64,000 bases of DNA. It comes from Beroe forskalii (Eukaryota > Ctenophora > Nuda > Beroida > Beroidae). Where the stretch lies: assembly GCA_011033025.1 (NCBI GenBank), contig WFMF01000176.1, forward strand, positions 124,001 through 188,000. The letters are read 5' to 3'. Made by a program: the position numbers and the translations under genes. Every line of letters starts with the position of its first letter. Within the stretch, counting starts at the first letter, position 1. Positions 2,302 through 60,567 of this stretch are shown piece by piece. The notes below the pieces were generated by a model, which worked only from the letters and a program-made list of their open reading frames with translations, was not told where the DNA came from and searched no databases.

Positions 2302-2392
2302 ACATACCATATTACATTGTCGACATGACAACATACCACATCACATTGTCGACATGACAACATACCACATCACATTGTTGTCATGACAACAT
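2302..2392. repeat. 29-bp splice-donor minisatellite, distal block
   Basis: About three copies of the 29-bp unit that also lies beside the last visible FERM exon (2839-3074). It is separated from the main block by about 450 bp of unrelated sequence, which includes a short direct duplication near 2395-2430. Confidence 0.8.
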
Positions 2393-2738
2393 ACCAGAAT
2401 AAAACAAAAGTTCAGAATAAAACAAAAGTTTATTTCGCATTTCTTTATACACGCCTAAATACTGAATATATACAAAATATGATAAAAATTCTGGTTTCAG
2501 GGTAATATTGAAATCAATATGGATTAGAATATTCTAATAAGGGGATTCTGGTTTCAGGGTGATAGGGAAACTCTAACATTAGAGCATACAGATGATAGGG
2601 TTCTGATATCAGGGTGTAGGGGAATTGTATAACATTAGGACATTAGGACATTCTAACAAAGTGATCAGGAGTAAAATTTCTCTGATTTTGACTTAGCCCA
2701 CGCCTTTAGATGACCTCCTACCCAGTGAGGGTAGGCTT

Positions 2739-2809
2739 ACAAGTGCTGGCGAAACGCAAGGTCGCAAGGCTGGAGGCTTATTGCTTCCTTTAAGTGTACC
2801 AGCACTTGA
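2739..2809. repeat. small inverted-repeat element
   Basis: Terminal inverted repeats acaagtgctgg (from 2739) and ccagcacttga (to 2809) enclose about 50 bp. The element interrupts the 29-bp minisatellite, so it is probably a short mobile-element remnant. Confidence 0.45.
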
Positions 2810-2838
2810 AGCTAGGATAGTCTTTGTTTCTAGTATAT

Positions 2839-3074
2839 ATACCACATCACATTGTCGACATGACCACATACCACATCACATTGTTGACATGACAACCTAC
2901 CGTATCACATTGTCGACATGACAACATACCATATCACATTGTCGACATGACAACATACCACATCACATTGTCGACATGACAACATACCAAATCACATTGT
3001 CGACATGACAACATACCACATCACATTGTCGACATGACAACATATCACATCACATTGTTGACATGACAACATAC
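2839..3074. repeat. 29-bp minisatellite copying the FERM exon 4 splice donor
   Basis: About eight copies of a 29-bp unit directly abut the FERM exon. Read on the minus strand each unit carries the last exon bases (TGTGATGTG) followed by the donor GTATGT, so most copies repeat a usable-looking 5' splice site. Confidence 0.85.
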
Positions 3075-3249
3075 CACATCACAGAACCAGGCACACTGCT
3101 GGATGTATCCATCCTCGTGATGCTCATCTGAGTCAAAGTCTCCCATCTCCGCCTGCAGAGCGTACGCTGCTAACATGACCTCAGTGTTTACAGAACACAC
3201 CAACTTATCCTCAGAGATGTCCTTCTTCAGCTGGCACACAAATGAGTAC
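3075..3249 (-). CDS. FERM gene exon 4 (F2 lobe)
   Basis: Phase 2 to 0. Begins RYSFVCQLKKDISEDKLVCS and includes AAYALQAEMGDFD. The donor GTATGT at the left end is the one copied in the adjoining minisatellite. Confidence 0.85.
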
Positions 3250-7507: not shown

Positions 7508-7606
7508 TCACTCAATGCCCATAGGGGACTGATGCATTATGGTCTGGAGGTCATCTTGATCAACAGAATGATTCCCAGCAGATGATAAATCAAGTTCTTT
7601 TCCATT
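7508..7606 (-). CDS. LE gene exon L60 (C-terminus and stop)
   Basis: 33 codons including TGA, phase 0: [20 protein letters not shown]...MGIE. Acceptor TTTGAG is preceded by a branch-point-like TTGCTAAT. No membrane anchor. Confidence 0.55.
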   Translation of the reverse strand, partial: NGKELDLSSAGNHSVDQDDLQTIMHQSPMGIE

Positions 7607-10600
7607 CTCAAAGATTAGCAATTTAGATCATCTTAGATTTACTTGAGGGACTAGTTCAACATGGTTTACGTACTTTGCAATCTATTTCTTCTCTCTCAAC
7701 TCTGTCACATGTCGCTGTCTGGAATGGAAATGAATTTAAGAATAATATATGTATGAAGATACCTAATGTGAAGTTTTTTCATTTCAAATTTTAGAACATT
7801 AATTGGGGTATAAAATATTAGGTATTATAAATATATATGCAGAGAACATGGAGATTTTACCTCACATACAGAAGAACATTACCTTGATGATTGTTGAGAA
7901 GTCACCACCTTTAGTAACATACTCCTTCCTAAATATTACTTTGGATCCTGTACATGCTTCCTTATCCTTAATGACACAGCTTCTAAAAGCCCATGGTCCC
8001 CACCTACACCCTCTCGTGTCACATTGCTTGCCCACGATCTGTGGGTTGCAGTCACAGTCTCCAGTGTACAGATGGCAATTAAAATTCCGGGAGCCCTCAG
8101 GATGGCAGTTACAATCTGCAGGGAGAGGTAGGAGGATGTTAGAATGATGAATCATGTGACAGGTTCCACTGACTGAACGCACAAGAACTTCTTCTGTTGA
8201 GGAATCATCTCAGACAAGCTATTCAGACACATACTCACCCACACAAGTCCTGTTATCTGCACTGGCGTAGTACTGCTGACTAGGACAACCATCACACCGT
8301 CTGGAGTCGTATCTGTTCTGTACAACCACTTCATTCTTAATATCAAACTTAGCACAGTTACACTGACCCGTTATAGGATCACACGACAAGTCCCCTGGAG
8401 GATGATAATTGGTTACCATGGCAACATATTGGTGAAATAGACTGTTACCATAGCAACACATTGGGGGAAATAGACAGTTTCCGTAGCAACAAATTGGGGA
8501 AACATACTGTCCAAACACAAGTGAAAAATGATCCATTACAAATTCCCTACTCTATGCCTAGAAAATGGTAAGCTGACAGATGCCCAATAAATGCCAGCAT
8601 GTAAACACTATGTTATCATACTCCATAGCAACAAATTTGGGGAAATAGACTGTAAACACAAGTTGTCTTCTCTTGTTGTACAAACTGTGTGACAGATGCC
8701 GTATAAATGCCAGTGCAGTTGTTATCATATCAATAAAACTACTTACTAAGTCGTTGTCGTCTCTTGTTGTACACCAGTTTGACTCCGTAAGGGTTGCAGT
8801 TGCAGGGCTGACACCCAGTGCCGCTGTCTAGTCCGAAGTGGTTGAGTTTGCACTGATCACACTTCCTGCCCTCCACATTGGGGAGACACTGGCAGCTCCC
8901 CTCTGAGTTGCAGGAGAAGGAGCTGGAGCCAGCCATGTCACACCCGCAGTTCTCACACTGACCGGTGGTCAGGTTGAAATACTCGTACTCCGCACACCCG
9001 AAGCAGGTCCTGGCGTCTGAGAAGGAGGCGGAGGGAGAGCGACACGAGCACTGTCCGGTCTGCTTGTCACAGACGCCGGAGTAGGAGCCCTCTGGGTCGC
9101 AGAGACAGGACACGCACTGCTCACCTTCTCTGTAGAAACCGTCCGCACACTCACCACAGTCCACTCCTGGGAGGGCAGGTTCAAATAGGGATGGGAATGG
9201 AAGGGTTCAAATAGAGATGGGAGGGTTCAAGGAAGAGGGTTGTATGGTATGGGGGGCTTGGGGGTCAATAGAAGTAGAAGATAGGATAGTTCAAGGAAGG
9301 GGTAATATGGCACTGGCAGGTGGGGCATAATATGGGGGGGGGGGGAATTGAGTAAGGTGCAGTGCGATGTGGTTGGATGTAGGGGGTAAGGTAAAATTTG
9401 GCAAACTTTTGGCAAACGCGCAAACTCTTCCAAAAAGTGGAAGCGTTTGCCAAAGTTTGCTCCTATACCCCCCCCCCAAATGTAATCCATGAGAAAGTAC
9501 GCGTCGTTCCAGTAACTACCTGCATATCCCTGCTCGCAAGTACACACCCCAGTGTAAGGGTTACAGATGCTGTCCAAGGATCCCGGGAACACGCACGGGC
9601 AGTTCTCGCAGACTCCGTCGCTGTAATAAGTGCCTAAATAGCACTCCTCGCACTGCCCGCCGACTATCACCTGGTGTCAGAAGCGTTGTCAGGGTGTTGT
9701 CAAGGATACATAAGTGTTGTCAAGGGGTTGTCACAGGTGTTTTCAAGGGTGATACAGGTGTTGTCAAGGTGTCACAGAACAGGTGTTATCACTCAGCTAA
9801 ATGTTTATTAATCGTTTATTCAGTGCCACAGTAGCAGTGTTGTCACAGTAGCAGTGTTGTCAGGGTGTAACCAATAACTAACCTGTCCGGGCGGGCAAGT
9901 CTCGCAGGTCCTATCGTTAACGAACTCCATGCCTCCCTTACAGGAGCACTGTCCTGTCCAGCTACACTCCCTGATCACACCCCCGAGTGTGTTCTCCACC
10001 ACACACCCGCACTCCACGCACTCAGGGTCTCCGAACAGGACGTCTGGAGAGTAATAACCAGCCCTGCAGTTCTGACACTTCTCACCCTCGTGTCTCTCGT
10101 CACACTCACACTCTCCCGTCACCCGGTCACAGACGGAGGAGAGGGAACCCACCGGGTTACACCGGCATTCTGTGGGGAGATAGAGGGGTTATACTAATGA
10201 GGGGGGGTTACACCGGCATTCTGTGGGGAGATAGAGGGGTTATACTAATGAGGGGGGGTTACACCGGCATTCTGTGGGGAGATAGAGGGTTATACTTGTG
10301 AGGGGGGGTTACACCGGGCATTCTGTGGGGGGCATTCTGTAGAGGGGTTATACTAATGAGGGGGGGTTACACCGGCATTCTGTGGGGAGGGGTTATACTA
10401 AAGGGGGGGGGGTTACACCGGCATTCTGTGGGGGAGATAGAGGGGTTATACTAATGGGGGGGGGGTTACACCGACATTCTGAGGGGGAGATAGAGGGTTA
10501 CACTAATCGAGGGGGGGGGTTACACCGACATTCTGTGGGGAGATAGAGCCACACGGTGGTTCACTTATACTAATGAGGGGGGGGGGGTTACACCGGTATT

Positions 10601-13600
10601 CTGTGGGGAGGGGAGAGGGGTTAACACCGACATTCTGTATACTGTATACTGAAGTACACAAGTTAGGGGGTGCAGTACTGAAATACACAAGTTAGGGGGT
10701 GCAGTACTCGCCTGTGCAGCTGCCGTGCAGCAGATAGAAGCCAGTGTCGCACAGAGTGACACGTGTTGTCCTCCACAAAGTGACCTAAAGGACACATCTT
10801 GCACGCGCCCGCTGTCAGCACGTGCATTTGAGGGCACTGCTCGCAGGTCCTGGTGTCCAAGTTATACCTGAGGGATGTGGTGATCAGAGCATTGCGAAGT
10901 AATGCTCAGTCATTTCCTTGAATACTAACACATTGGAGAGATCTGGTCAAATTATTACTCAATATGTAAGCTAATTAAAGAATGCAGCCTCTGCCGTCCT
11001 GTACTCACATCGGGTCTATACAGTCGCAGCGCCCAGTGTCCATATCACACTCATTATCCCTGCTGTTGAGCGGATCACACCTACACTCCAGACACCCCGC
11101 GTCTAGACCCCACCTCTCCTTCTCACACTGGCCACACAGCGCACCAGTGTAGTGCTCTCTGCACGTGCACTCCCCGGTCACGGGGTCGCAGCGCGCGGTG
11201 CCGCGCGGGTCACACGCGCACGTGGCGCACACTCCGGAGACCTCGTAGGTGCCGGCAGGACATGCGCGGCACGTGTTGTCATCGTGTAATGTGTAGCCGG
11301 ACTCACATTCCTCACAGCTGAGGGGTGAGACTGGTTGCCTTCTGAGACTGAGACGAGGGCATTAAACTTACCGTGGGTGGGTAATAGCATGTTACAAATC
11401 ACAGATAGATCCAATTTGAGGGCTAATATTAGATTATTAAAAGGAGCGAAATTTAGTAATCCGGATACTATACTGGGGGGGGGGGCAACCCCCTCAATTT
11501 TGGTGGATATCAAAAAATCGCCAATAGGGGGTTTAATTTTGGGGGGTTTTGGGGGGTTTTTGGGGGTTTGAGGGGGCTTAATTCTTAGTGAAAAATGGGG
11601 AATTTTTTTCTTAAATGGTACCATTTTTGTTCCTGATCTTTTGCACCTTTTCAAAATGGCACCATTTTTGGTCGTGATTTTTGGCGATTTTTAGAAATGG
11701 TACCATTTTTGTTTCCAGTTTATGGTACCATTTTTGTTTATAATTTTGTGAACTTTTATGAAATGGTACCAGTTTTGTTTCTGATTTTCAGCATCTTTTT
11801 CAAATGGTACCATTTTGTTTCTGATTTTTTGCACCCTTTAGAAATGGTACCATTTTTGTTCCTGATTTTTGCACCATTTCAAATGGTACCATTTTGGTCA
11901 TGATTTTGGCGATTTTTGGAAATGGTACCATTTTTGTCTCCGGTTTATGGTACCATTTTTGTCTATAATTTTTGGAACTTTTATGAAATGGTACCATTTT
12001 TGTTTCTGATTTTCAGCATCTTTTTCAAATGGTACCAAATTTGTGTCCGATTTTTTGCGCCTTTTCGAAATGGTACCTTTTTTATTCGTGATTTTTGGCA
12101 ACTTTTTCAAATGGTAGCTTTTTTGTTTCTTCATTTTGGTGCTTTTTTTAATCTTACTAGAATAATTTTGCTGTCGATAGGGGGTTTAATTTTGGGGGGT
12201 TTAATTTTTGCTGTCGATAGGGGGTTTAATTTTGGGGGGTTTAATTTAACCCCCTGGTGGATATAACGAATTTCCAATAGGGGGCTTAATTTTGGGGGGT
12301 TGCCCCCCCCCCCCTATACTAGTTTACTATACTAGTTTTAACCTGTAGTCCTCCGCTACTCGGTGGTTGAAGGGGCACATCTCACAAGTCCTCGTGTCCT
12401 TGTGGAACAATGTCTCGTCAGCGCAGGGGCATTGCCCCGTACTCCTGTCACACACTGAAGAGGTGGAGTGCGTGGGGTCGCACGCGCACGCCGCGCACTC
12501 GTCACCATAGTAACCCGCCGCGCACACCCCACAACGCCTCCCGGTGTAGTTGTCAGGGCAGTCGCACTGCCCGGAGACTTTGTCACATACGGTGGAGAGG
12601 GAATCAGGGGCGCAGGAGCAGGCCACGCAGTCTGCAGAGTAGAAACCATCCTGGGGATGGGAGGGTCAAACACTGAGAGAATTGTTAGTCTTGATGGAAG
12701 AAATGATCCTGGGAAAGTTGATAATGTCGCCTCTCACTGCAAGATAAACAACTCACCACACAGGTGTCACAGAGCTCCCCTGTAAAGCTGGCTCTGCAGG
12801 TGCAGTCCCCAGAGAAGGGATCACAGCTCCTCGTTCCCTTCTCGTTACACGGGCAGTCTGATGGAAGGTAGAGAGTGAGTGTGGGTCTCCAATAATGTGG
12901 TGGGCCCTCCGGATTTCATGGGGATTCCAGATTTTGGGGATGGAGCTCTATAGTTCAAGTTGGGGGAATGAAATCGAACAAGAAAGCGAATGGTTAAGCT
13001 GATACCAATCTCTAGCAACTTCCCCATTACCTAGCAACCCCCACTCCCTAGCAACCCTCCCCCACTCCCTAGCAACCCTGAGTACTAACCTACACACGCG
13101 TAGTTAGAAATGTAAGTCCCTGGGCCACACTGCACACACTTCCCATCAACAATAACAAGGCCCTCTAGACACGGTTTACACTTCAGAGCGTCCACATACG
13201 GTCTGTCTCCTGAAATGAGAGCTTCAAAATTACTAGGTTTTAGAATGGTTAATTGATGAGAAGGTAAGGTTTCAATGAATACAACTGAGCCAATACTTCC
13301 CAGGTCTAACTACACCTATATGTGAGCTTGATAATATGAGTGATTAATATAAAGTATTCCATGTTACCGTTACACTGGCACTGCCCCTCGTCTGAGCACA
13401 CCACACTCCCGTCAACCGTGTGCTCCACAACACAGCCACACTCCACACACTCCCCTCCACTCTTGTGATACCCGTCCTGAGGGGGGGGGGTTAATGAGGG
13501 GGGTTACTGAGGGGGGGGGGGGTTACTGAGGGGAGATAACACAGCCACACTCCACACACTCCCTCCACTCTTGTGATATCCGTCCTGAGAGAGGGGGTTA

Positions 13601-16600
13601 CTAAAGAGGGGGTTAATGAGGGGGGGTTAGTGAGAGGGGGGTACCTAAGGGGGGTGTTACTTAGGGGGGATGTTACTGAGGGGGAGGGGGGTTCCACACA
13701 CTTCCCCCCACTCTTGTGATACCCGCCCTGATAGGGAGTGAAATACAGCCGGTTTTATTAAAGGGGGGCTTCCCTAAGGGGATGAAAGGAAAGGAACTCT
13801 GGATGTGATCCAACATCATCGCAGATAAAAACAATAGTAACGTAGAAGTGGGTTTTATGACCCAATGAGATTATTAGTAGTCTTGACAGATCATTGTTTC
13901 TCCTACTCTCATACCTGACACTGGAAGCAGTTGTGACCCTGGTAGCCTGTCATGCAGTCGCATTTCCCACTATCTGTTGCACACACGTTGTCTTCTGAAC
14001 CAGGGAGGTAACACTCGCATTCAACGCACTTACCACCCTTACTGTGGTACTCAGCCTGAGTAAAATGTATTTAAGAATTTAGATCAACACCAAAAGGCGA
14101 AAATGTAGAAGCCTTCTGAACATGCAGAATTTGTACGACTTGTAAGACAACGGGAGTTTCGATAGAAAATAAACTCTTTTAAAATCCACTATGTTAACCT
14201 GGCACTGATCGCACTTGTCCCCAGTGTATCCGGTTAGACAGGAGCACTCTCCGCTGATGACGTCACAGACATTGTCACGCGATCCTTCAGGATGGCAGCC
14301 ACACTGCTCACACTGCCCCTCTGAGCTGTAGAACTCACTCTGAAGGGAGGGAGGGGGTTTAAGAATTAAAGGGAGTTTTGAACCATATACTAGTTGAAAG
14401 GTTGATCCCGGGGTTTTAAGGTTTCTGTGCAAAGAACATATTTTGTTTCTTATACGCTCCGATTGTTAAGAAATGTTCACTTCTACTAACAGCCGCTAGT
14501 TTGACAAACTGCATACTCATGCATGACATTATGAGTAGCAAGCAAGTGATTCCAACTCAGCACATAGCGCTAGTGTTTCAAAAACTTGTTTTCAGTGTAT
14601 TTTGCTTCTTGAAGAGTACACTGTGTTGTTGATATGGCGTCTAGAATTGCAACTTGCTTTCTAAACTTCTAACTGGTTGACTGCTTAATCTTAGTTGTAA
14701 TGTCTTATTCAATTATTCAGATTCATCCTATCTTTTAAGGGAGTATTCTCTCTTCTTTTGTTATTCAATTCCCAAACTGATTTTCAAACCAAGAGGCGTA
14801 TCTTGCAGTCTCTGACTGACCACACCATTCCCCAGAAGTCACAATACAAACAAGATGGGGTTATACGAGATTATGACATCGTTCGTTCTGGTCGGTAAGA
14901 ACTTCAAGACCAACGTTTTCAAGATAATAAAGATAGACGACGGCTTCGACTGGTGGAACAGAGGGTTCATGGTGTTCATAACCTTCCTATTCGGAGTAGC
15001 TATCATCTTCCACCACTGGATGTTTGACGTTATCAACTGCCTGGACTTCCAGTACCCAGCCTCGGGGTACGAGCCCACGGAGAGCATGCACAACTTCCAC
15101 GAGTTCGCACAGGAGTACTGCTGGAGCTTTGGTCTGTACACGGTGAGGGAGGCATATGACTTGCACCCTTCCCAGACCCCCTACCCTGGCATTCTGCCAG
15201 AAGAGCACAGTGGGTGTTTGGAGCTGGAGTTAGTGGGAGGAGGGAGGATAGAGTGTCCAGACCAGAGTGAAGTGATGCCTTACCAGAGACTTTATCTTGA
15301 GGTGGTACCCTGTCGTCATCTTCTACTTCATGTTCACTTCTTCCTCTTCTTCTTCCCTTACAGACTCTACAAGTTGCAGGGTCTGAAGGACATTAAGGAC
15401 GTGGTTCTGATGCTGCAGACGCAGCCGGAGTTTGCAGACGACCTGCCTTTCTACATAGAACGAGCAGCAGTTTGGCTTGACAAGACCCTGACAGTGTACA
15501 TAGAGAACAGAGACAGTATCAGAGGGAAGCTGAAGAGACACGAGTACTTCCTGCTGGTTCTGGTGATGAAGCTATCCTACCTGGGTATCACAGTGGGACT
15601 CATCCTCTTCACTGACAGGATGTTCGTATCAGATCACAGACATGGGGGCAGCTATCTGACATACGGCATCCAATGGCTGGCAGACATCACCTCCTCCGAA
15701 CCCACCCTCATCACGCCCGTACAGACTAAACTCTTCCCTAAGATGGTACAGTGTGAGGTGAAGAGGTGGGGAGTAACTGGGCTGGAGGAGTGGCAGGGGA
15801 TGTGTGTTTTGGCTGGCAATGTGCTCTATCAGTGGCTGTTTCTAGGGTATTGGTACTGCCTCGCAGCCACCCTTCTCCTCAACATTCTCTCTGTGGTATT
15901 TATCTGCATCTCAGAGCTGAAGGTGGACTACAGCTACCAACGCTTCCTAAACACTGCTTACGTAGAGGACACTCAGGAACTGAGGCTGATCTACAGGAAC
16001 ATAGGAACTTCAGGAAGGATAGTTCTGCGGATCATTGCTAACAACGTGAGTCCTAAAGTGACGGACGAGCTGATTAACTACGTCATCATGTTCCTTCTCA
16101 GGCGGGGGGAGGATGAGGAGCAGCAGCCACAGAGGAAGGACGGCTACAAACCTCTCAACGGGGGTGTAATGCACGAATCTTGAACTTTGATATTTTGCAG
16201 TTTTGTCTTAGATTTTAGGATGATGTTATCGATTGCACATTATATTCAGTAGCCCTTTGATATAAGAGCTTTTTTGTTTTTGTGACAAAATCTAAAATTC
16301 AAAAAAATAGTTTCCTTCTTACCTTCTTCTAATTTCTCGTACAATTTACACGAGTACAATGATTTTGATAATCTTCGTAGTATATCTTAAGAATACATTA
16401 ATGTTAACAAATCGTATCCCTCTCACCTGACAAGCCGTGCACTTGTTTCCCTCGTAGCCCTCCAAGCACTGACATTGTCCTGTGGTCGTGTCACACTGGT
16501 TACTCTCAGATCCAGGCACGTAACACATACACTCAGCACACAGGTCCTGATCCTTGTAGAACTCAGACTGAGGACAGGTGGGTGTCAGGAGTTAGACTGG

Positions 16601-19600
16601 TGTCAGGGTAGACGGGTGTCAAGGTACTCTGGTGTCAAGATAGACTGGTGTCAGGGTAGATTGATGTTAAGACAGAGGGGTGTCATGGTATATTGATGTC
16701 AAGGTAGACTGTTGTCAGGGTAGACTGGTGTCAAGGTAGACTGGTGTCGTCTAGACTGGTGTCAATGTCTGGTGTCGTCTAGACTGGTGTCAATGTAGAC
16801 TGGAGTCAGGGTAGACTAGTGTCAAGTTCAGACAGACATACCTGACACACATCACACTTGTTTCCTTGGTAACCAGTGAGGCAGGAACATTGCCCGTTCT
16901 CATCACACACATTGTCTTCTGATCCGGGCTCAGAGCACTGACATGGCAGACAGGAGTCATCCGATGCGTGGAATTCATCCTAGGGGATGGGACAATGTAG
17001 CGATTATGGTTTTTCAGCTTTTTAGGGTCGAGCTGGTAAAATTCCTGGGAATTTCTTCTAGTAAATCAAAATTCTAAGTGAAATCAGTCAGTGAAAGTTT
17101 GGTTATAGTTTACCTGGCATGTGTCGCAGGTTCTGCCAGTGTACCCACTGAGACATGAGCACTGCCCTGTGTCCCCATCACACCCCATGTCACCCCCAGT
17201 TCCTGAGCCGTTACACCCACACATCCTACAACTAGTCTCTGTCTCCTTGTAATACTCAACCTGAAGGGGAAGGGGAGTTGTGCAGCGCTTTCTGATAGAA
17301 TTGTTACTGGTTGTGGTTCCCGTCTTCAATCAGTAACTTTGATTAAAGTTACTTCATTTCAAGCTTTTCAGGGCCTTATATTTAGTTGATTTGCAATCAA
17401 CACTTCGTTAAATGGTAACTTAAAGCAACCCCATACTCAACCTGGCAGTTGTTGCACTTGTCTCCCTCGTATCCCTGCTCACACTCACACTGCCCCGTGC
17501 TCTTAGAGCACACATTGTCAGCAGCCCCCTCAGGGTTACACCCACACGCCTTACATCGTGTGTCGTAGTACTGATAGAACTCATCCTGGCGGGAGGGACA
17601 GAGGGGTGAAAGGTGGGGAATTTGTTATGGGAGATGGCAGGAATCAGGGAGAACGAAATTTAATGAGAAGACTAAATTTGTGGGTTTTGAACCCACTGGT
17701 TTAGAAATCAGTTTATACTGGACTAGTTATTCACAGCCTCACCTCACACATCTGGCATTGCCGTCCAGTGTAGCCATCCTCACAGTCACACTGCCCTGAC
17801 ACCTTGTCACAGTTACCACTGCTGGAACCAGAGGAACAGTCACACGCTGAGGAAGGGAGGGGGTTAATGGGGGGTCTTCGGGTGGTGTATTACTCAGGTA
17901 TTTATTTATAACTGTATTACTTAGGTCTTAGGGTGGCAAGCTTTCATGAAGCAAAAGTTCATGTAGATGTGGATTCGGGAACTGATTTCTGACTAGAAAA
18001 GTAAATTTATAAACTATAAGTAAGTGGTGTGTTACCACTAAGGCAAATCTACGAGTATCGATGCATTTCTTACGTTCGCAGCTGCCGCTGTCCATGTACT
18101 CCTCATCCTGACAGTAGACACACTTATTGTCAACCACGTACTGACCAGCAGCGCAGACAACACAGGCTCCTTCAACAACAATGTGAAGCATATTTGCTCA
18201 ATCTACGGAAAGTGACAGCCATTGAAACGTGAATTTGATTTCAGGAGAGTTAATGTGCAATAATTGTATCAAAAATAAATGTATCAATACAGCAATACAA
18301 GAGAAGCTACAATCTAGTGAACTGGAAGTCTCCACGGCAGTATGTCTGGGGAACCACAGGATTGGAGGGGACTGCTTTGTCTTCTTCTCTGGATGATGTG
18401 ATGCCCTCTTGTTCTTCTTTTTGACAACCCGAGTTAGGAGTTTCCTGGTGTATTTGGAGACACTACAAGTCACTGGAGTTAGGGTTGAGGACCGCAAGGA
18501 GTCTTCTGGTAGGGCGTCAGAGTAGGGGTTTACAGGGGGTTGGGAGGAGTCTCTAGGGGTGCCATGGTTACCAGGCTGAGAGTCATGGGAACAGGTGCCA
18601 TGGTTACCAGGCAGGATGAGGGTGTCATGGTTACCAGGCAGAATGACGGTGTCACAGTAGGGGGAGGGGGGAGGTATCTCCAGGTAGGTTGGATCCAATG
18701 TCAGGTCAGGATCAGGTACATGGAGAAGATGTGTGGATTTGCTGCTAGGATGAGCAGGAACAAGATAAGTGGAGTTGAGGGAGTCAATGCTGTCGTAGGT
18801 GTGCCACAAGGCTGCGTCTCCGGCCCCCTCTGGCAGATTAACGTAGACAGGAGGGTTAGAGAAAGGCATGTTGATGTAGGGGGAGGTGTCGTGGGTAGGG
18901 ACAGGTCTGTAGGAGGAGATGTTTGTTGAGGACTTCATCTTGGAGATGTCTTGAATCGGAACAGCTGGTGGTGGAAAGCAGAAGAATGGAACTGATGATA
19001 CTGAGAACCCTGGATCAGTTTAAATACTCAGCTGCCTTACTAAGTGACATGTGATGTCGTTAATAAATCCAGCGGTCATGTGATACAATCATGTGATATC
19101 GTTATCAAGGCACATTAAAGGGATCATGGGTTGTGACGTATGACACATGACCCATACAGGATCCGATGACGTGATCTGTAACAGTGGGTCATATGCCATA
19201 TCAACTGTAGTTCTCCGACATTTGTTGGAATATAAATACTCTTTGTGATACTGATTCGAACCCCAATTAATTTCAAAGGAGTGGAATTTATAGTTTTGTG
19301 ATGAGGTTAGGACGAAGTGAAAGGACTTTGCTATTTATCTGATGCATCTTAAGGAGATCAGAATTTGACTTGCCATATCGAAGAGATCCATTATACTGAA
19401 CCCATATTTTTGGCACATTTTTCAGAACATCAACGTAGCGCGCAGAACACATTTGTGATTCCGTCGCGCGCCCATGCGCCACCAAAGCAATATTTGGCAA
19501 AATTTTCCCATGGTCTTCTCGACACTCGCCGAATGAAGACCATGTGGTCAATGACTACGAACAGTTGAAGCAGAACAGTTTACAATTGAAGCAGAATCCA

Positions 19601-22600
19601 CGAACACTGAGCCACTACCGCTATATCTGAATCCTATAGTAAATGTGCCCGGTTTAAACTCACGTGGTTATCTGGACATTTCAGACAGGTGACAGGGTCG
19701 AGGAAAGGTCCCAACTCCTCCTTACATCCACACTGCCCACTGTCTCTGTTGCAGATCTCTGAGAGGGAGTTCTCTGGAACACAACCACACTCCTGACATC
19801 CGGAGTTAGGAGAGTGGAATCCTGCCTGGGGGTGTCTTGGTTACAGGGGTGTCATGGTTACAGTGGTGTCTGGTTACAGTGGTGTCATGGTTACAGTGTT
19901 GTCAAGGTTACAGTGTTGTTAAGCCTAAGGTAAACGTTTTGCCATGGTTACAGTGTTGTCAAGTTAAACTTGTCTTTTTCAAAGCTAGGCTTGCTAACCT
20001 GGCAGATGTCACATTTGCCTCCCTCGTATCTGTCATTACACGAGCATATCCCTGAGACCGGGTCACAAACGTTGTCAAGAGATCCATCAGGGAAACACAT
20101 GCAGTCTGGGGGGAGAGTAGGGTGAATTATCCTAACTATTAATCAAGGTATATTACACCTTCCATCAAGGTGTAGAGGAAGTGCAATCAAAAGGGAGTAA
20201 AATATCCGCGACTCTGTTAAAACTGAAACAAGTGATTGATCAAAGATAAACCAACTGTCGCCCTACCTTTACAGTTTCCATCAAGTAAGTAGAGTTCATC
20301 AGAGCAGAAAGTGCAGGCATTGTCCTGTACAAAGGTGCCTTTAGGGCACTTCACACACTTTCCATCTTCCAGAATCTGAGAGGGTAAGGGTTGCAGGAAT
20401 AGTTGCTATGGATACCAGTCAATGGTTGTCATTGCCACCAGTTTAATGGTCTGGTATTAGTTGCTATGGATACCAGTCAATGGTTTTCATTGACACCAGT
20501 ATTAAACAGGATTAAACAAATTATGATCAAATCACCAGTATAATGACCTGGTATAAGTTGCTATGGATACCAGTCAATGGTTGGTATTGACACCAGTATA
20601 ACGTCCTGGTAAAGTGGTAATAGTTGCTATGGATACCACTCAATGGTTGTTATGGATATAACTCTGATGCCGTTACCATCGTAACTCACCGTATCGTCTG
20701 CACAGGCTCCACAGCGCTGAGTGTCGAGGAAAGGTCCGTTTTCCTGTATACAAGAACACTGTCCAGTGACCACATCACATTCGCTGTGTTCTGAGTTATC
20801 AGGATCACAGTTACATGGAATACAGCCCTCAGCCGTGCTGTAATATCCGGCCTGACACACATCACACTTGTTTCCTTGGTAACCGTTTAGACAAGAACAT
20901 TGCCCGTCCTCATCACACACATTGTCTTCTGATCCGGGCTCAGAGCACTGACATGGCGAGCAACTGCCTCCAGTCCGGTAGAAACCATCCTGCAATTAGG
21001 TGGTGATGAAATGGGTTGTATATAAAGCCGAGATTTCACTTTTACCGGTGAGGGGTATTTAGCCAAAGACAATCCATTCCTAATGTTTAAAACAAGAAAT
21101 AGGTTGTATACTTGTATAGAGGGCAGGGGTTTCTAAGACAATCCATTCCAGGAGTTACCACAGGAACACCTACTCAAGTACAGGGCTAGCTACTGGAGTA
21201 ACCTAATAGAGGGAGATTCAGGAGAGTTTACTCACCAGGCACTGATCACAGAGTTGTTGCGTGTACCCTTGCAAGCAAGGGCACTGTCCAGTACTCTTGT
21301 CGCAGATGAAGCTGTCCACTCCCATGGGGTTACACGCACAGTTCCTACACCTGCCTTCCTTCTTGTAATATGCGTCCTGGGGTTTAGGGTATGTATTAGG
21401 GAATGTATTAGGGAATGTATTAAGGAATTACAAGCACAGTTCCTACACTTGCCTTCTTTCTTGTAATACGCGTCCTGGGGGTTAGGGAATGTGCAGGACA
21501 ACTAAAGGAAGAATCTGCAAGTATCACTGGAGGTACCTGAAAACAAGTGACAGTTTCTAGCACTGCGTTTCCATGGTTACGCACACTCCGTTGCCATGGT
21601 TACCTGACATATGTAACGACCACTCCGTTGTTTATGGTTACCTGGCACGTGTCGCACGTTTCTCCTTCGTATCCGAAGTTACAGTCGCACTGTCCTGTGC
21701 TCTTGTCACAAACTCCACTTGTAGCGCCTGATTCGTTACACTCACACGCCACACACTGACCACTGTTACTCAACTTGAAACCGTCCTGTAACAAAGTACT
21801 TCAGTAAGATCGGTGTTTGAAAATTAAGGAATGAATTGCCGTAATTTGGGGAAAGGGTATAGTCGAGGAATACATTTACTAAGAACTAACCACAACACAA
21901 TTAGGATAACACCGTCCTTGCAAGAATCGCACTTGTCTCCTTGGTAACGGCTCTTGCAACTGCATTTCCCTCCGTCCTCAGCGCAGACAGAAGTCAGAGA
22001 TCCTTCGGGGTAGCACCCGCAATCTGGCACAAGACACAATCGTTAGAGACCAAATTATTATTGTGAGAACTGTACTGATGTCATTGAACAAAGTCAAAAT
22101 TTTGGCATTTGGCATTTATCCAAAAAATTCGCCTACCTTGACATTCTCCGTCCTTGAGGAAGGTTCCAGGAGCGCATCTCTCGCAGACTAGAGGCATAAC
22201 GTAGGGGGTGTTGGGGAGACAGGCACACTGCCCAATGTCACTGCACTCCTTGGAGTTTGAGACAGTGTTCTCTGTGACACAACCACAGGAGACACAGGAT
22301 CCCTCAACCAGATAGGTGCCAGAGGGACATCGCTCACATCTGGAATTAAAGGTGGTTATGAAGCACTGAGTGAGCAGCAAGGTAGGGGAGAAGATAGTTG
22401 GTAGTTTAGACTTTTAGAGCGAGAATATATTTGGTTTCTATGCGTGTTGGTAGGATAAAGAGGATTTCCTAACTTTTTGATGACTCTAGAGAGACCTACC
22501 TTCTGGCATCTTTTCCGAAAGGTCCGTTTTCCTGTATACAAGGACACTGTCCAGAGACCACATCACACTCGCTGTGTTCTGAGTTATCAGGGTCACAGTT

Positions 22601-34600: not shown

Positions 34601-37600
34601 AAACACAAATCATAGTGTAAACGGACCCATTTATCTCCTTAGCCCTAAAACATTTCCTTGTGTTTGAAAATACCTGACATTCGTCACACATCAGCCCCCC
34701 GACGTTCTCACGGCACACACAGTTTCCGTCGTCGTCGCACGGTTTCTGGGGGAACGCCACACCCAGCTGGTTGCAGTTACACGCTGCAAGGGAGTGGGGT
34801 TGCGGTGACAATTCGTACTGCACTCTGCAGTGTGCGCGGCTTTTGTGTGCACACTGCAGTGTGCGCGGCTTTTGTGTGCGCGGCTTAGGTTTGCGCAGCA
34901 TACATACATTTTTTTCATATGTCTGTAAGCCGCGAAAACTTAGGCTGCGCACACAAAAGGGATTGTTTAAAAAGAACGATAAAACAGTTTCCAATGCCCT
35001 CACATTCCTGATTTCCAACAGGAATGTGAAAGCAGTCATTCAACTTTGAATCGACTTTTGCGATCAGTTTCCAATATGCTAACGATTCATTCAGTTTTTT
35101 AGCTTTACTAAAGTATCGATTGCAATGAATGCAGTTTTACCAATTACCCTGGGTATTTAGTATGGACCATTCTAAGGACTCGATGATGTAAATGAAGATG
35201 AAGACGGTTTTCAAAATCATTTCTACTTTTAAAAGGTGTAAGGAAAACTGCACAAACACGTACCAACAGAAAAACAATCGAGGAAAACCGAGGAAATAGT
35301 GAAATACCTAAAAGGAATAATCGACTAGGATCTGCACTCAGGATGAGATAACGGTGCAGTATCTATACTCAGAAATTACTTGGTCGATACAAATCTCATT
35401 TAGAATTAATGCAGTTATCGCCAAATGTTCGCTGTTCTATGCTCTACTGGTGGTGTTTAGTGGTGTTTTGCGCTGGAGATTACATTACAGGGTGGCTAAG
35501 CGACTGCTTAGCTATGAGAGGGAGTGGATACACTGACTACTGACTCGGGAATACCCAGATTTCGCAGTGTACCAACATCTTCTTAAGTTCCTTCTTGCAA
35601 CCGCTGCCCCATATCTGTCACCCTACATCCGTAGTTTCTTCGAAATGTTCTCATTTACCCCCTGCACCCACAGGATAGTCAAAACCCATTATTCCAACTT
35701 ATTGCCAGTTTCAATTCACCCTCAAACTCTCTTCCCAATTCACTACTCGTCACCCTTCCCAGGTGTTTTTCCCAAACCATAACCCCATTACTCACCCTTT
35801 GCAAACCTGAGCCACCCATGAGCCTCCACCATCCCATGGTCGTTCTCCCCAAAGCAGGTGTACCGGCCCTCATCTTCCAGCTGCAGGTTTATGAGGTCCA
35901 GGATGACTATCGTGCTGCCCCCCGTGGGGGAGGTGCCGTACTTCGGGAATATCATCTGATGGAGAGAGGGTGTGAAGAGGGAGAAGAGGGGTGGGGGAGA
36001 GGGGGAATGGAGTGGGGGGAGAGAGGGAGAGTGGGGTGGGAGCAGAGGGAGAGAAGAGGGTGTGAGGGGGAGTGAAGAGGTGGGGGAGTGGGGTTGGGGA
36101 TTGGGGTGGGGGAGAGAGGGAGAGTGAGGGGAGTGGGGTGGGGGGAGAGGAGGAGTGAAGGGGAGGGGGAGGGGGGGGAGAGGGGGGAGTGGGGTGGGGG
36201 AGAAGGGAGGGGGTGGGGGAGAGGGGGAGTAGGGTGGGGGAGAGGAGGAGTGAAGGGAGGGAGGGGGTGGGGGGGGGGGGAGAGGGGGAGGGGGAGGGGG
36301 GAGTGGTGTGGGAGAGGCGGATATTACACAAAATACCATGAAATATTATGCTTACCAAATGTGTGGAAATTCATTGACTAACGCCCTGCTTCCTCATCTT
36401 CATTGGCCTATCAACAGGGTTAAACTTGATGGCCACATGCGCCAAGGGGTTAGCTTTTATCTTGCACTTGAGCTGTTGGTTCATCCCAACTTCCACTGTG
36501 TGGTTTCCAGGGCCTGTAATGACGGTGGGAGGGCCTATCGAGATGGAGGACATGCCTCTCCGCCGTCTACTGAGGAGTCCTGGGGTCTCGAGGGAGGCGT
36601 CATCACTGCTACTCAGGGCGAGCACTGGGGGGTAGGAGGGTTAGGTGGGGGAGGCGTCATCACTGCTACACAGGGCGAGCACTGGGGGGTAGGAGGGTTA
36701 GGTGGGGGAGGCGTCATCACTGCTACACAAGGCGAGCACTGGGGGTAGGAGGGTTAGGTGGGGGAGGCGTCATCACTGCTACACAGGGCGGCACTGGGGG
36801 TAGGAGGGTTAGGTGGGGAGGCGTCATCACTGCTACACAGGGCGAGCACTGGGGGTAGGAGGGTTAGGTGGGGAGGCGTCATCACTGCTACACAGGGCGA
36901 GCACTGGGGGTAGGAGGGTTAGGTGGGGGAGGCGTCATCACTGCTACACAGGGCGAGCACTGGGGGTAGGAGGGTTAGGTGGGGGAGGCGTCATCACTGC
37001 TACACAGGGCGAGCACTGGGGGTAGGAGGGTTAGGTGGGGGAGGCGTCATCACTGCTACACAGGGCGAGCACTGGGGGTAGGAGGGTTAGGTGGGGAGGC
37101 GTCATCACTGCTACACAGGGCGAGCACTGGGGGTAGGAGGGTTAGGTGGGGAGGCGTCATCACTGCTACACAGGGCGAGCACTGGGGGTAGGAGGGTTAG
37201 GTGGGGAGGCGTCATCACTGCTACACAGGGCGAGCACTGGGGGTAGGAGGGTTAGGTGGGGAGGCGTCATCACTGCTACACAGGGCGAGCACTGGGGGTA
37301 GGAGGGTTAGGTGGGAGGCGTCATCACTGCTACACAAGGGCGAGCACTGGGGGGTAGGAGGGTTAGGTGGGGGAGGCGTCATCACTGCTACACAGGGCGA
37401 GCACTGGGGGTAGGAGGGTTAGGTGGGGGAGGCGTCATCACTGCTACACAGGGCGAGCACTGGGGGGGTAGGAGGGTTAGGTGGGAGGCGTCATCACTGC
37501 TACACAAGGAGCACTGGGGGTAGGAGGGTTAGGTGGGGAGGCGTCATCACTGCTACACAGGGCGAGCACTGGGGGTAGGAGGGTTAGGTGGGGAGGCGTC

Positions 37601-38030: not shown

Positions 38031-38042
38031 GTCGCATCTGGC

Positions 38043-42259: not shown

Positions 42260-42748
42260 CTAATAAATAGGTGACAAAGAACTAACAGTAACAGTACCAC
42301 ACCTTTTATGACTGACCACTTACTTACTTATTAAAGTTAATCGCATATTCACGCAGAACACACGCACAAACATCTTTTGACTGCCACTACGATACAGATA
42401 ACGATTACAAAAGTACAAACGCGGCGAATGGCAACCATGATTATTACTGAGTAAACACGCACACACCATGATAATTTTGATGATAGGATACTCGTAGCTC
42501 AATCAAATATTTTTGAACTGATTTGATTCCAAGATTTATTTTGTGGGATGATCCTTCCGAAATTGAAAAAAATGCTTAAAACATGATGTATGTGTCCAGA
42601 TGTATTGATTGTAATGACGTCTGCGGGATTTTCTTTAAGATTTTTGACATTTTGCGTTGATATTAATTGCAATAATAGATTCATATATTATGTAATAAAG
42701 TTTTTAAAGCCCTTAGTGGTGCCCCTCCGGGGTTTTCAATCAATCAAT
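40037..42748 (+). mobile_element. 5'-truncated LINE (non-LTR retrotransposon) inserted in satellite
   Basis: Unrelated sequence splits the satellite: left junction at about 40036, right junction after the tail tcaatcaatcaatc at about 42748. It contains an open reverse transcriptase frame, about 490 bp of 3'UTR and a TCAA-repeat tail instead of poly(A). The endonuclease region is missing, as expected for 5' truncation. Any target duplication is hidden by the repetitive flanks. A tail copy of the same family is at 50233-50458. Confidence 0.9.
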
Positions 42749-49671: not shown

Positions 49672-49854
49672 TCATAAGTTGGGAGTGCTCCTTGTCAAGT
49701 CCTTGCTTTTCCAGACGTTCTCAGTGTAGTCTCGGTAGGAGTTCCACTGTTTCTTGGCTGCCAGAATCTCGTTGTTTTTCTTTGCTTCAACACAGAACTG
49801 GGGCGTTTTCAGCTCGTACCATTTCGGCTTTGGTCCTCTCAATCTTTCAAGCTC
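49672..49854 (-). CDS. Tyr-rich gene exon 4 (stop)
   Basis: Phase 0. ELERLRGPKPKWYELKTPQF...VWKSKDLTRSTPNL and TGA. Acceptor TGTTTCAG. Confidence 0.8.
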   Translation of the reverse strand, partial: ELERLRGPKPKWYELKTPQFCVEAKKNNEILAAKKQWNSYRDYTENVWKSKDLTRSTPNL

Positions 49855-52800
49855 CTGAAACAGAATTATGTAGAAAACCCTGTCAACCGTCAATCTGTCA
49901 CTAAATTCGGCCGATAGTTGATAGAATTAAGAAATTAAGGTCTGTACGGCGCGGTAACATTTTCTAGACATCTTTTACCCGCGAATTGAAAGCGCGCGCG
50001 CAATGCTTCACAATCAGGTAACCGCGCCAGACGCAAAGTCCTGCTAAATCCGCCACTGTGTGCCAGTGTGACGCACTCAAGTTCGTGAAAAACAGTCGAT
50101 AGCCTTCACTTTTTTACACAAGCACCTACCGCAGGCTATAGTCGGTTATATGTCGGTCATATGGCCGAACCTGTGCGTATCGTAATCTAAAGTAGTAACT
50201 GATCTTATAGGTGTCTTATTTCCGGGGTATATTGATTGATTGAAAACCCCGGAGGGGCACCACTAAGGGCTTTAAAAACTTTATTACATAATATAGGAAT
50301 ATGTTATTGCAATTAATATCAAAGCAGACTATCAAAAATCTTAAAGAAAATCCCGCAGACGTCATTACAATCAATACATCTGAACACATACATCATGTCT
50401 TAAGCATTTTTTTCAATTTCGGAAGGATCATCCCACAAAATAAATCTTGGAATCAAATCAGGCTATAGTCGGTTATATGTCGGTCATATGGCCGAACCTG
50501 TGCGTATCGTAATCTAAAGTAGTAACTGATCTTATAGGTGTCTTATTTCCGGGGTATATCAATGCCTCCAGGACGTTTGTAGACATACCAATGTCTTTAG
50601 TATTTGAGCCTATGAAGAAAAACCTGAATAGCTGAACGATTTATGGTTCTAGTGGTTTCAAGCCCTCACATAGCACGAAGCAGTTTTCAGCCATAGTTTG
50701 GGTCTCTATGGCCATAAATTGTCCAAGTATCTTAAGATGTTTGTAGACCTAGAAGAAATAGCTACTGGAGCTGCTCCAAACAGCATAGACTAAGACTAGG
50801 CCTGCAGGCAGTTGACCTCAGCCTCTAAAGCCCAAAGATCCGTCGCAACACACCTCTAAAATTCCTTTGGAGTGAAAGCAGCACCACTTCCCAAATCTGT
50901 TAACGAACAGTCCACACTTGATTCATTCATAAGTGACTCTGGGAAGATTTCTTGAGAGCTTTCCCGACACACCTCCAACAACAGGATACACTGCTGTGAA
51001 CAGCAGCAGCCTTCTTGAATGGAATCTTCAGAGATTCTCCAGAATGGCATGTTGACGTCGCCCAATCGCCCATTTATGATCCCGGCAATTGTAAGGTAAA
51101 GTATAATGCAAGAGCTCAAGTTTTGGACAATCCTTTCTCAAATTTAAATTACTTCCTTCATTAACAAGGCGAGGTGCTGACTGTGTTCCAAGTCCCAACA
51201 TCCAGCTAGAATTTAATTTACTAACTTAACTAAGCCACCTTCTCGATTAAATTCAATAAAATGTGAGATTTGACTGACATCGACACACGTACGACACGAG
51301 CCAGCAAAAGGAGACACATTCCTGAATGAAGTGGCATGCACGTCAAAACTATGTGTGTGTCTTCACAAGTATACATTGACAGCAAGCTCACACGTCCGGT
51401 ACTTACTAGGTGTTTCAAATGTTAGTATATACCAATGCTGTTTTTAATCTGGCGAATATTTGACAGATTGGTATGAACAGGGTATGATTATAATTGTATA
51501 CCCTGTATAACACTACTAATTTGGACCTGGTGGCAAATAGCCAGGAACCCTATTCTTTCTATGTCAGCAGAGTTAGTCAAGAGAATGAGTGGCGGGAATT
51601 TGAAATTTAATCTCGACTGGATTTCATACTGAGCTTCGTAATGCACGAAGAAATGAGCCGCGTAGAGCCGACACCCTACGGGTTAATAATCTGACACGGG
51701 CCATACTTTAAAGTTAAATTTCCACTTTTAACGAGGAGTTGTAGCTGACCTGGAGCCTCCTAATCTCCAGCAGCCTCTTCTCCTCCAGTCTCAAGGACTG
51801 CAGACGGAGGGTGTTGATCTGTCCCCGGTAGGGCGTGGCTGAGCAGGCCAGACGCGGCCGCGGCGCACCCTCACTCCATATCTGCGTGTCGAGGATATCA
51901 TCGTCAACATCCAAATCATCTGCTGCACTGAGGGGGGAAGGGGGTTAGAGAGGGGGAAGTCAGAGGGAGGGATGGGGGATTCCGGAAGAATCAGAGAGGG
52001 GGGATCAGGGGAGGGAAGGGAATCAGAGAAAGGAAGGGAGTCCGGAGTAATTTCTTGATGCTTCTATGACATTGGAATTACTAAGTTAACAGCACATTAT
52101 CGTGCAACTCACAGTCTGTAAGATCTCGAGAGCTCCGCCTCCCCTCTAGTGAGATCCCCTCTTGAAGCAGATCGCGAGGGGGACGCACCCCCTCGGGAGG
52201 GGGACGCATCCCCTCGGACGCACCGGCTGGACTCGTCCAACTTGTCGTCAATGGACCGGGAACTCAGCTCCAAGTCCTCTCGCAGCCGGTTTATGTTACA
52301 TCTCAGGTTCTCTAGCTTGTCGATAGACTTCACATAGTCTTCAATGGCACTCGTTTCCTGCAATGGGATGTGGTTAGTGGACTTCACATAGTCTTCAATG
52401 GCACTCGTTTCCTGCAGTGGGATGTGGTTAGTGGACTTCACATAGTCTTCAATGGCACTCGTTTCCTGCAGTGGGATGTGGTTAGTGGACTTCACATAGT
52501 CTTCAATGGCACTCGTTTCCTGCAATGGGGTGTGGTTAGTGGACTTCACATAGTCTTCAATGGCACTCGTTCACGTGTCTTCAATGGCACTCTGAATAGG
52601 GTGTGGTTAGTGGACTTCACATAGTCTTCATGGCACTCGTTTCCTGAATGGGATGTGGTTAGTGGACTTCACATAGTCTTCTATGGCACTCGTTTCCTGC
52701 AATGGGATGTGGTTAGTGGACTTCACATAGTCTTCAATGGCACTCGTTTCCTGGAATGGGATGTGGTTAGTGGACTTCACATAGTCTTCTATGGCACTCG

Positions 52801-53357
52801 TTTCCTGTAATGGGATGTGGTTAGTGGACTTCACATAGTCTTCTATGGCACTGGTTTCCTGGAATGGGATGTGGTTAATGGACTGCTGAGTACCAGACTC
52901 CCCCCAAAATACAGCTCATAGAGAGTAACTTATTTGTTTAATTTAAGTGATTTCCTACCCCATTTTCATCCCATCTCCACCCCTTCCCCATTTAAACGCC
53001 TGACAGTTCTAGTCGAGTAGTCGAGCACACATATTGATATACTACTACCCCTCCCTTCCCTCCTGACATAGCTCCTGAGCAGTCAGGAGAGTCTCCCGAC
53101 TACTAGAGACATACTAAGTAGTGCGGTGTGTATCGGTAGTATCTCTCCAGGTCTCTGTGGTAGAAGTAGTCGTAATACTTGTCGTAATACTTGTCGTAAT
53201 ACTTCCAGTACTTGGCGTAGTACTCGCTATTCCAGGTATTGAAGGGGTAGAACCTCCAGGGGCGGTAGTAATACTCCCAAGCTGCCCTCCCACTCAGCTC
53301 CCACGGTCTGTAGCGGCGCAGGTAGTCGTTATACAGCAGGTCAAACTTAGCTGACAT
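49672..53357 (-). CDS. Tyr-rich/coiled-coil protein, unrecognised (4 exons, 282 aa)
   Basis: Four exons join with phases 0-0, 0-2, 2-0 and 0-stop. The N-terminus (MSAKFDLLYNDYLRRYRPWE) leads into an extreme Tyr/Trp-rich segment (YYAKYWKYYDKYYDKYYDYF). Exon 2 adds a charged helix (IDKLENLRCNINRLREDLEL) and a Ser/Arg-rich stretch. Exons 3-4 join into a coiled coil across the splice (RLEEKRLLEIRRLQ, then ELERLRGPKPKWYELKTPQF). No signal peptide or membrane segment, so I infer an intracellular structural or cytoskeleton-associated protein. I do not recognise a family. The ATG lies 3 nt after an AG acceptor. Confidence 0.75.
50132..50232. repeat. 101-bp target-site duplication, left copy
   Basis: Exact direct repeat of 50459-50559 flanking the LINE tail copy; ambiguity of a few bases at the ends. 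Confidence 0.9.
50233..50458 (-). mobile_element. 5'-truncated LINE tail copy
   Basis: About 226 bp nearly identical, in reverse orientation, to the 3'UTR of the LINE at 42519-42748, including the ccggggttttcaatcaatca tail. It lies in the large intron of the Tyr-rich gene, between two perfect 101-bp direct repeats. Confidence 0.9.
50459..50559. repeat. 101-bp target-site duplication, right copy
   Basis: Exact match to 50132-50232 on the other side of the insertion. Confidence 0.9.
50580..50740. repeat. dispersed repeat, copy A
   Basis: Segments such as gaacgatttatggttctagtgg and catagtttgggtctctatgg recur inverted at about 55955-56110. An old interspersed element with no coding sequence. 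Confidence 0.6.
51750..51927 (-). CDS. Tyr-rich gene exon 3
   Basis: Phase 2 to 0. LDVDDDILDTQIWSEG...RLQSLRLEEKRLLEIRRLQ. Acceptor CCCCTCAG, donor GTCAGC. Confidence 0.8.
52113..52357 (-). CDS. Tyr-rich gene exon 2
   Basis: Phase 0 to 2. ETSAIEDYVKSIDKLENLRC...RGDASPSRGGASPSRSASRG. Acceptor CCCATTGCAG|GAAACG, donor GTGAGT. The adjacent array repeats this acceptor. Confidence 0.8.
52358..52870. repeat. 54-bp minisatellite copying the Tyr-rich exon 2 acceptor
   Basis: About ten copies of a 54-bp unit. On the minus strand each has CATTGCAG|GAAACGAGTGCCATTG. The proximal four units are in frame and stop-free (KSTNHIPLQETSAIEDYV). Distal ones include indels near 52570-52650. Confidence 0.9.
53115..53357 (-). 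CDS. Tyr-rich gene exon 1
   Basis: 81 codons from ATG, exits phase 0 at TTA|GTATGT. Contains three tandem YDKYYDK-like steps. Confidence 0.75.
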
Positions 53358-60467: not shown

Positions 60468-60567
60468 NNNNNNNNNNNNNNNNNNNNNNNNNNNNNNNNN
60501 NNNNNNNNNNNNNNNNNNNNNNNNNNNNNNNNNNNNNNNNNNNNNNNNNNNNNNNNNNNNNNNNNNN
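60468..60567. other. assembly gap (100 N)
   Basis: Exactly 100 Ns follow the satellite, so the gap length is probably a placeholder and the array is longer than shown. Confidence 0.98.

What the first reader, a model, noticed from the sequence alone, without database searches (positions are those of the whole stretch)
2302..52870. Recurrent, window-wide pattern: tandem arrays seeded at splice junctions
The same architecture appears in unrelated genes and introns. Donor arrays: FERM exon 4 (29 bp) and L16 (25 bp). Acceptor arrays or duplications: L54, L48, L35, L26, L18, L10, L5, L2 and exon 2 of the Tyr-rich gene. Smaller ones are at L12, L13 and L28. Units differ in sequence, so this is a process, not one repeat family. 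It suggests replication slippage or a repair mechanism focused on intron ends, or selection for redundant splice sites. I know of no name for this as a genome-wide trait.
Basis: partly seen in the sequence, partly recalled or inferred. Interest (0 to 1): 0.85.

Follow-up and report, generated by a model that had tools for sequence, protein, structure and literature searches.

The report
Tandem duplications straddling splice sites ("mirages")
In a long animal gene several exon-intron borders have been copied repeatedly into the neighbouring intron; the copying is real, but it resembles 'mirages' already described in lancelets and looks mostly like harmless copies tolerated in a repeat-rich genome rather than a process aimed at splice sites.

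Summary
I modelled 54 exons of one laminin-EGF/Ig gene (minus strand, about 8-35 kb; 54 acceptors, 49 donors, no RNA evidence). Eight acceptors lie in a tandem duplication copying intron end plus 16-67 nt of exon start. One donor does so strongly (25 bp, about 41 copies). A FERM-gene donor (29 bp) and an acceptor-like site before a Tyr-rich ORF (54 bp) look alike, with less secure exon calls. Some arrays, e.g. 8412-8510, only lie near an acceptor. Units of separate arrays are unrelated.

Arrays fill 25% of intron bases in this gene, and intron interiors are duplicated more often than junctions. Donors show no clear excess over random placement. Acceptors show an excess that depends on the null (6 of 22 loci against 0.7-4.0 expected; P from under 0.001 to 0.18). 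Using the nearest upstream acceptor copy would give a stop or frameshift in 6 of 7 cases, which argues against selection for spare sites. The trait has a name: 'mirages', in lancelet genes.

Best reading: slippage or unequal exchange, tolerated because the terminal copy stays intact. The species is undetermined; if not a lancelet, this is a new lineage for mirages.

The parts
8015..34783 (-). Laminin-type EGF gene with Ig-like exons; 54 exons modelled (further exons at both ends not modelled)
33532..33975 (-). Acceptor array at exon LE2: 43-bp unit (17 nt intron + 26 nt exon), about 10 copies
34215..34548 (-). Same 43-bp unit, about 8 copies, split from the LE2 array by about 240 bp of other sequence
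31490..31738 (-). Acceptor duplication at LE8, shift 177, 67 nt of exon copied
30658..30730 (-). Acceptor duplication at LE10, 47 bp, 21 nt of exon copied
30067..30120 (-). Weak donor duplication at LE11, 29 bp, 2 copies
27984..29003 (-). Donor array at LE14: 25-bp unit, about 41 copies, ends of exon plus GTTAG
27306..27540 (-). Acceptor duplication at LE16, shift 174, with a nested 15-bp array at 27366-27484; open and in frame between the two acceptors
26337..26438 (-). 46-bp array ending 2 nt before the LE19 acceptor; not junction-spanning
24545..24685 (-). Acceptor array at exon Ig4, 57-bp unit, 2.4 copies, 39 nt of exon
21585..21660 (-). Weak donor duplication at LE28, shift 38
21330..21492 (-). 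Acceptor duplication at LE29, shift 98, 47 nt of exon, with a 12-bp array between
13429..13684 (-). Acceptor duplication at LE41, 108/109 bp, 48 nt of exon
10154..10548 (-). Acceptor array at LE47: 51-bp unit, about 8 copies, 16 nt of exon
8412..8510 (-). 32-bp array 17 nt before the LE52 acceptor; not junction-spanning
2839..3083 (-). 29-bp array at the presumed donor of a FERM-domain exon; exon end not independently fixed
2302..2396 (-). Same 29-bp unit again, 3.3 copies
52326..52884 (-). 54-bp array with an acceptor-like CAG per unit before a Tyr-rich ORF; intronic or coding not decided

Best explanation
These are junction-spanning minisatellites of the kind called 'mirages'. Tandem duplications arise often throughout the introns of this genome by replication slippage or unequal exchange (inferred). 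When one straddles an exon edge, the terminal copy keeps the exon and its splice site and all other copies fall into the intron, so the change is nearly neutral and the array can grow like any minisatellite (inferred). Shown: the unit anatomy, the intact AG in the nearest copy at 8 of 8 acceptors, a 1-nt deletion in the exon part of the LE41 copy and amino-acid-changing differences in the LE8 copy, and a stop or frameshift if the nearest copy were used in 6 of 7 cases. Acceptors may be hit somewhat more often than donors or intron interiors.
For: Anatomy at 8 of 54 acceptors and 1 of 49 donors. Arrays cover 25% of intron bases in this gene and 21.6% of the window; intron-interior windows are duplicated more often than junction windows, and array coverage rises with distance from the junction. 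TRF arrays span junctions about as often as random placement with 40 nt exon overlap allowed gives (4 acceptors and 2 donors of 30 arrays, expected 3.6 and 3.7). Consequences of using the nearest upstream acceptor. Lancelet mirages have the same layout, and RT-PCR there suggests regular splicing is not disturbed (PMC3087553, passages).
Against: Array edges cluster near acceptors under the strictest null: 12 of 30 within 20 nt against 3.3 expected (0 of 5000 simulations), donors 7 against 3.2, P 0.019. My own caller finds 6 acceptor-spanning loci of 22, against 0.7, 1.7, 2.4, 3.1, 4.0 expected with 10, 20, 30, 40, 60 nt exon overlap allowed (P under 0.001, 0.006, 0.022, 0.068, 0.18), and 10 acceptor edges within 20 nt against 4.2-5.8 (P 0.001-0.038). 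TRF arrays of score 90 or more: 4 of 16 against 1.2, P 0.023, at 20 nt (2.0, P 0.11, at 40 nt). Acceptors exceed donors, 8 of 54 against 1 of 49, P 0.033, or 3 of 49 with the weak ones, P 0.21. So an acceptor bias is not excluded. No RNA; nearly all the statistics come from one gene.
Confidence: 0.7

Rival explanations
1. A mutational process acts preferentially at 3' intron ends: C-rich tracts and short repeated motifs before acceptors promote slippage or template switching there, so duplications start at acceptors more often than elsewhere.
For: Acceptor excess in several nulls; acceptors above donors, P 0.033 without the weak donors; last 60 nt of introns C-rich (0.35 against 0.25) with more CCCC runs (18.8 against 10.3 per kb), though any 3' splice site is expected to be pyrimidine-rich.
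Against: Excess fades when realistic exon overlap is allowed (P 0.068 and 0.18 at 40 and 60 nt; P 0.50 at 40 nt for TRF arrays); the observed overlaps reach 47-67 nt, so the small-overlap nulls are too strict. LE14 and the FERM donor need another cause.
Confidence: 0.2
2. Selection keeps redundant splice sites, or the copies serve as alternative splice sites.
For: AG kept in the nearest copy at 8 of 8 acceptors; few changes at AG/GT across copies; LE16 is open and in frame between its two acceptors, 58 aa.
Against: Nearest upstream copy gives a stop or frameshift in 6 of 7. Most other columns are also unchanged, and some units were cut at the tested motif, so the conservation test is uninformative. 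One-nt deletion in the LE41 copy.
Confidence: 0.05
3. Some of the arrays are coding repeats or exon extensions rather than intronic copies (LE16 insert; 54-bp Tyr-rich array).
For: LE16 region open in frame; 54-bp unit reads as 18-aa repeats in several copies, with open ORFs 52112-52570 and 52631-52915.
Against: The Tyr-rich array is broken between those ORFs; the other tested acceptors are not open and in frame.
Confidence: 0.15
4. Copies are partly an assembly artefact.
For: Repeat-rich sequence, one N gap, near-identical LE22-23 and LE25-26 stretches.
Against: Two-copy cases differ from their exon at several bases; two arrays are interrupted by other sequence. Raw reads were not available.
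Confidence: 0.05

Closest known systems
'Mirages' of lancelets (Adh3, globins BflGb6 and BflGb9, TnC, PGBD5)
   Same: Minisatellite-like tandem duplications spanning an exon-intron boundary, at either boundary, many but not all copies with AG/GT (PMC3087553 passages; PMC3902484 passage)
   Different: Here several in one gene, mostly acceptors, up to about 41 copies; no haplotype, somatic or RNA data; host not identified. The original Adh paper (PMC117041) is not held
[quoted passage not shown]
   Same: Duplication crosses an intron-exon boundary and carries a putative branch site, polypyrimidine tract and 3' splice site (abstract)
   Different: There a new intron was detected; none is shown here
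Internal tandem repeats changing human gene structure (PMC2812944)
   Same: Minisatellite expansions that lengthen introns or exons (passages)
   Different: Recent primate segmental duplications; the search was not limited to intron boundaries
Intronic minisatellites linked to multiple alternative splicing in C. elegans (PMC4039745)
   Same: Arrays in introns near spliced exons (passages)
   Different: Mainly one dispersed minisatellite (CeRep25B), not copies of the local junction

Membership tests
Mirage (junction-spanning minisatellite) | Repeat unit includes exon and intron sequence of the same junction | tested here: met
   8 of 54 acceptors, 1 of 49 donors
Mirage (junction-spanning minisatellite) | Copies lie on the intron side; the terminal copy is the real boundary | tested here: met
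   At each of the 8 acceptors the terminal copy runs on into the LE or Ig coding exon; boundary inferred from homology and phase, not RNA
Mirage (junction-spanning minisatellite) | Many copies retain AG/GT signals | tested here: met
   Nearest copy keeps AG in 8 of 8; array-wide counts
Mirage (junction-spanning minisatellite) | Does not disturb regular splicing | not testable with these tools
   No RNA
Mirage (junction-spanning minisatellite) | Copy number unstable between haplotypes or somatically | not testable with these tools
   One sequence only; no genome held
Mirage (junction-spanning minisatellite) | Found in a cephalochordate (the cases I saw in print) | tested here: inconclusive
   Innexin scores 90.8 bits on Pfam; INX-6 is the only PDB match up to E 1; no reference lancelet sequence was available, so this is weak
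[quoted passage not shown]
   Needs RNA and an outgroup gene

The most novel reading that the evidence does not exclude
Outside lancelets, an animal genome rich in intronic minisatellites repeatedly duplicates whole 3' splice modules (C-rich tract, AG, first exon bases, often a branch-like motif) with a true acceptor bias, giving a standing supply of decoy and potential new splice sites across the genome.
Probability: 0.25. Interest if true: 0.65.

Novelty: new member of a known kind. Interest (0 to 1): 0.36.

Why it matters
If the host is not a lancelet, mirages are not a cephalochordate oddity but may appear wherever intronic minisatellites are dense. A gene with about nine clear examples side by side would be a good place to ask how the spliceosome passes over intact decoy sites a few tens of bases from the real one, and whether such copies feed intron gain or exon extension.

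Tried and rejected
Whole-genome search: no genome is held for this window, so no genome-wide enrichment test and no relatives. Rfam at gathering threshold: 0 matches. Spliced-leader-like motif: 0 matches, 0.3 expected (uninformative). Related loci for the innexin in viral contigs (18 pattern stretches, none confirmed) and genome contigs (66, none confirmed). Taxon: I suspected a ctenophore because of the divergent, uninterrupted, nested innexin (nested genes in Hormiphora, passages, which also says the rate is similar in primates and some arthropods; separate innexin radiation in ctenophores, passage). No reference sequence could test it; it stays a guess.

Splice-dinucleotide conservation across copies was rejected as evidence. 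The first Fisher test used miscounted totals 55/50; one search uses 54/49. My caller missed LE16 and LE41 as spanning and would miss comparable intron-internal cases; it also flagged a donor-side locus at LE22 (23468-23521) that scored 16/27 and was not examined further. One of the two TRF donor overlaps (LE11, 9 nt of exon) is a weak case.

Literature: in ten searches (open-licence library; listings only, top rows shown where many papers matched) I saw no genome-wide test of arrays on splice sites; that is not proof of absence. The lancelet Adh paper and the paper of reference B75 in PMC3087553 are not held. The earthworm paper PMC12783039 (passages) has intron-1 arrays but not junction copies in what I saw.
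Full report
What was examined. The window is animal DNA (Pfam innexin, FERM central domain and reverse transcriptase). I built an LE profile from the window's own domains, scored splice sites around each domain, inspected doubtful joins and fixed 53 exons, adding one more. I checked the phase chain by eye; it is consistent for most neighbours, but five exons lack a convincing donor (LE20, Ig4, LE24, LE27, LE53) and the stretches around LE20-21, LE24-28 and LE33-34 are incompletely modelled. Forty-nine introns have both ends called, median 229 nt, range 106-2087.

Is it there? Yes, in part. The repeats show units made of an intron end plus an exon start. The clearest is LE2: about ten copies of a 43-bp unit with 17 nt of intron ending in CAG and 26 nt of exon; only the last copy runs on into the coding exon. 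Its nearest copy is identical over 51 of 51 bases. LE47 (51 bp), Ig4 (57), LE16 (174), LE29 (98), LE41 (108/109), LE10 (47) and LE8 (177) have the same layout with two or more copies; 16-67 nt of exon and at least 13-25 nt of intron are copied (my comparison was capped at 25 nt of intron). Among donors, LE14 has about 41 copies of a 25-bp unit built on GCACAG|GTTAG. By contrast 8412-8510 and 26337-26438 stop 17 and 2 nt short of the exon.

Is it more than chance? As duplications, yes: shuffled acceptor windows never exceeded 18 of 27 identities in 265 trials, while the eight acceptors reach 19-27. As placement, much less clearly. TRF arrays (period 9 or more, score 50 or more) cover 25% of intron bases. 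A 27-base window has a near copy (22/27 or better) at 335 of 1603 intron-interior positions, 5 of 54 acceptors, 1 of 49 donors and 12 of 690 exon-interior positions (the intron windows include those inside junction arrays). Junctions thus lie between exon and intron and are not a peak; array coverage rises from 12% in the first 10 intron bases before an acceptor to 22-30% further in.

Placement tests. Of 30 TRF arrays, 4 span an acceptor and 2 a donor; placing each array at random in its own intron gives 2.1 and 2.1 with 20 nt of exon overlap allowed, and 3.6 and 3.7 with 40 nt. For the 16 arrays of score 90 or more, acceptors are 4 against 1.2 (P 0.023) or 2.0 (P 0.11). With no exon overlap allowed, array edges within 20 nt of an acceptor number 12 against 3.3 (0 of 5000 simulations) and of a donor 7 against 3.2 (P 0.019); this null is strict, because arrays that cross the edge count as touching it. 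My own duplicate caller found 22 loci: 6 span an acceptor, against 0.7, 1.7, 2.4, 3.1 and 4.0 expected at 10, 20, 30, 40 and 60 nt of overlap (P under 0.001, 0.006, 0.022, 0.068, 0.18), and 2 a donor against 0.7-4.0 (P 0.14 or more). Acceptors against donors: 8 of 54 and 1 of 49, P 0.033; counting weak donors 3 of 49, P 0.21. I read this as a possible modest acceptor bias in one gene and no established donor bias.

How it most likely works. Duplications that straddle an exon edge leave one intact edge and the rest becomes intron; expansion then follows as in any minisatellite. The upstream copies look like unused by-products: the LE41 copy has a 1-nt deletion in its exon part and the LE8 copy has several amino-acid-changing differences (its gaps are in the intron part). 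Of seven acceptors where I read on from the nearest upstream copy, five meet a stop before the exon, LE29 is frameshifted, and LE16 stays open and in frame, adding 58 aa; Ig4 was not tested. That speaks against upkeep of spare sites, but whether any copy is spliced is unknown. A YTRAC motif is more frequent 10-50 nt before acceptors (20 of 54) than in other intron windows (39 of 326, P 2e-5); of the eight mirage acceptors four have a strict YTRAC in the last 50 nt printed (LE8, LE10, Ig4, LE41; in Ig4 it lies in copied exon). So some units look like whole 3' splice modules. C-rich 3' intron ends could promote slippage; that is inference, and pyrimidine-rich ends are expected at any acceptor. 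Two arrays are interrupted by other sequence: the 43-bp array by about 240 bp, and a 30-31 bp array elsewhere by a stretch holding a reverse-transcriptase ORF; if these are insertions, the arrays are older than they are.

What is known. [quoted passage not shown] it proposes a route to new introns. The PGBD5 paper (PMC3902484, passage) adds PGBD5 and TnC. In potato a duplication across an intron-exon boundary gave a new intron (PMC4974935, abstract). So the kind is known. What may be new is the lineage: the innexin nested in this gene matches only INX-6 in the PDB up to E 1, at 4.8e-5, and scores 90.8 bits on Pfam. From general knowledge I would expect a lancelet innexin to score higher, but no reference was available to test that. 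A ctenophore is a guess.

Verdict. Observation largely right; 'no name' wrong; 'focused on splice junctions' unproven, with at most a modest acceptor bias. New member of a known kind; interest 0.36, higher if a genome-wide test outside lancelets confirmed acceptor targeting.

Noticed in passing
window 14855-16177 (+): Single-ORF, divergent innexin inside the intron between LE38 and LE39, on the opposite strand.
   Followed up: partly
window 39206-45022: A reverse-transcriptase ORF (LINE-like) is flanked on both sides by the same 30-31 bp minisatellite, as if inserted into it.
   Followed up: partly
window-wide, e.g. 8412, 20402-20685, 25652, 26856, 26886: A palindrome-like motif near GTTGCTATGGCAAC recurs: 35 matches at up to 3 mismatches, both strands counted, against 5.9 expected. 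Its resemblance to RFX X-box sites is recalled, not tested.
   Followed up: no
window 18558-18654 and 19831-19953, perhaps also 9685-9777 and 16581-16826: Short arrays in several introns share a GGTGTCA-like core (GGTGTCATGGTTACAG at up to 3 mismatches: 10 matches against 0.6 expected; the link to 9685 and 16581 is by eye), so these units may be related.
   Followed up: partly
window 21642-23636: The LE23 and LE26 exons are near-identical in protein; the ends of LE24 and LE27 lack donors and run into a copy of the next exon's start: recent segment duplication or allelic mis-assembly.
   Followed up: partly
window 18201-19019 (-): Open frame with several Y-x-x-hydrophobic motifs inside the stretch between LE33 and LE34; no Pfam match at E 0.01.
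   Followed up: no
window 10712-10867 (-): Exon 46b seems to need a frame change to keep its cysteine pattern and ends at a possible GC donor (CAG|GCGAGT).
   Followed up: no
window 555-1299: 143-bp tandem repeat, 5.3 copies, outside the modelled gene.
   Followed up: no
window 58524-60467: About 60-bp repeat, partly open as roughly 20-aa repeats, running up to the only N gap at 60468-60567.
   Followed up: no
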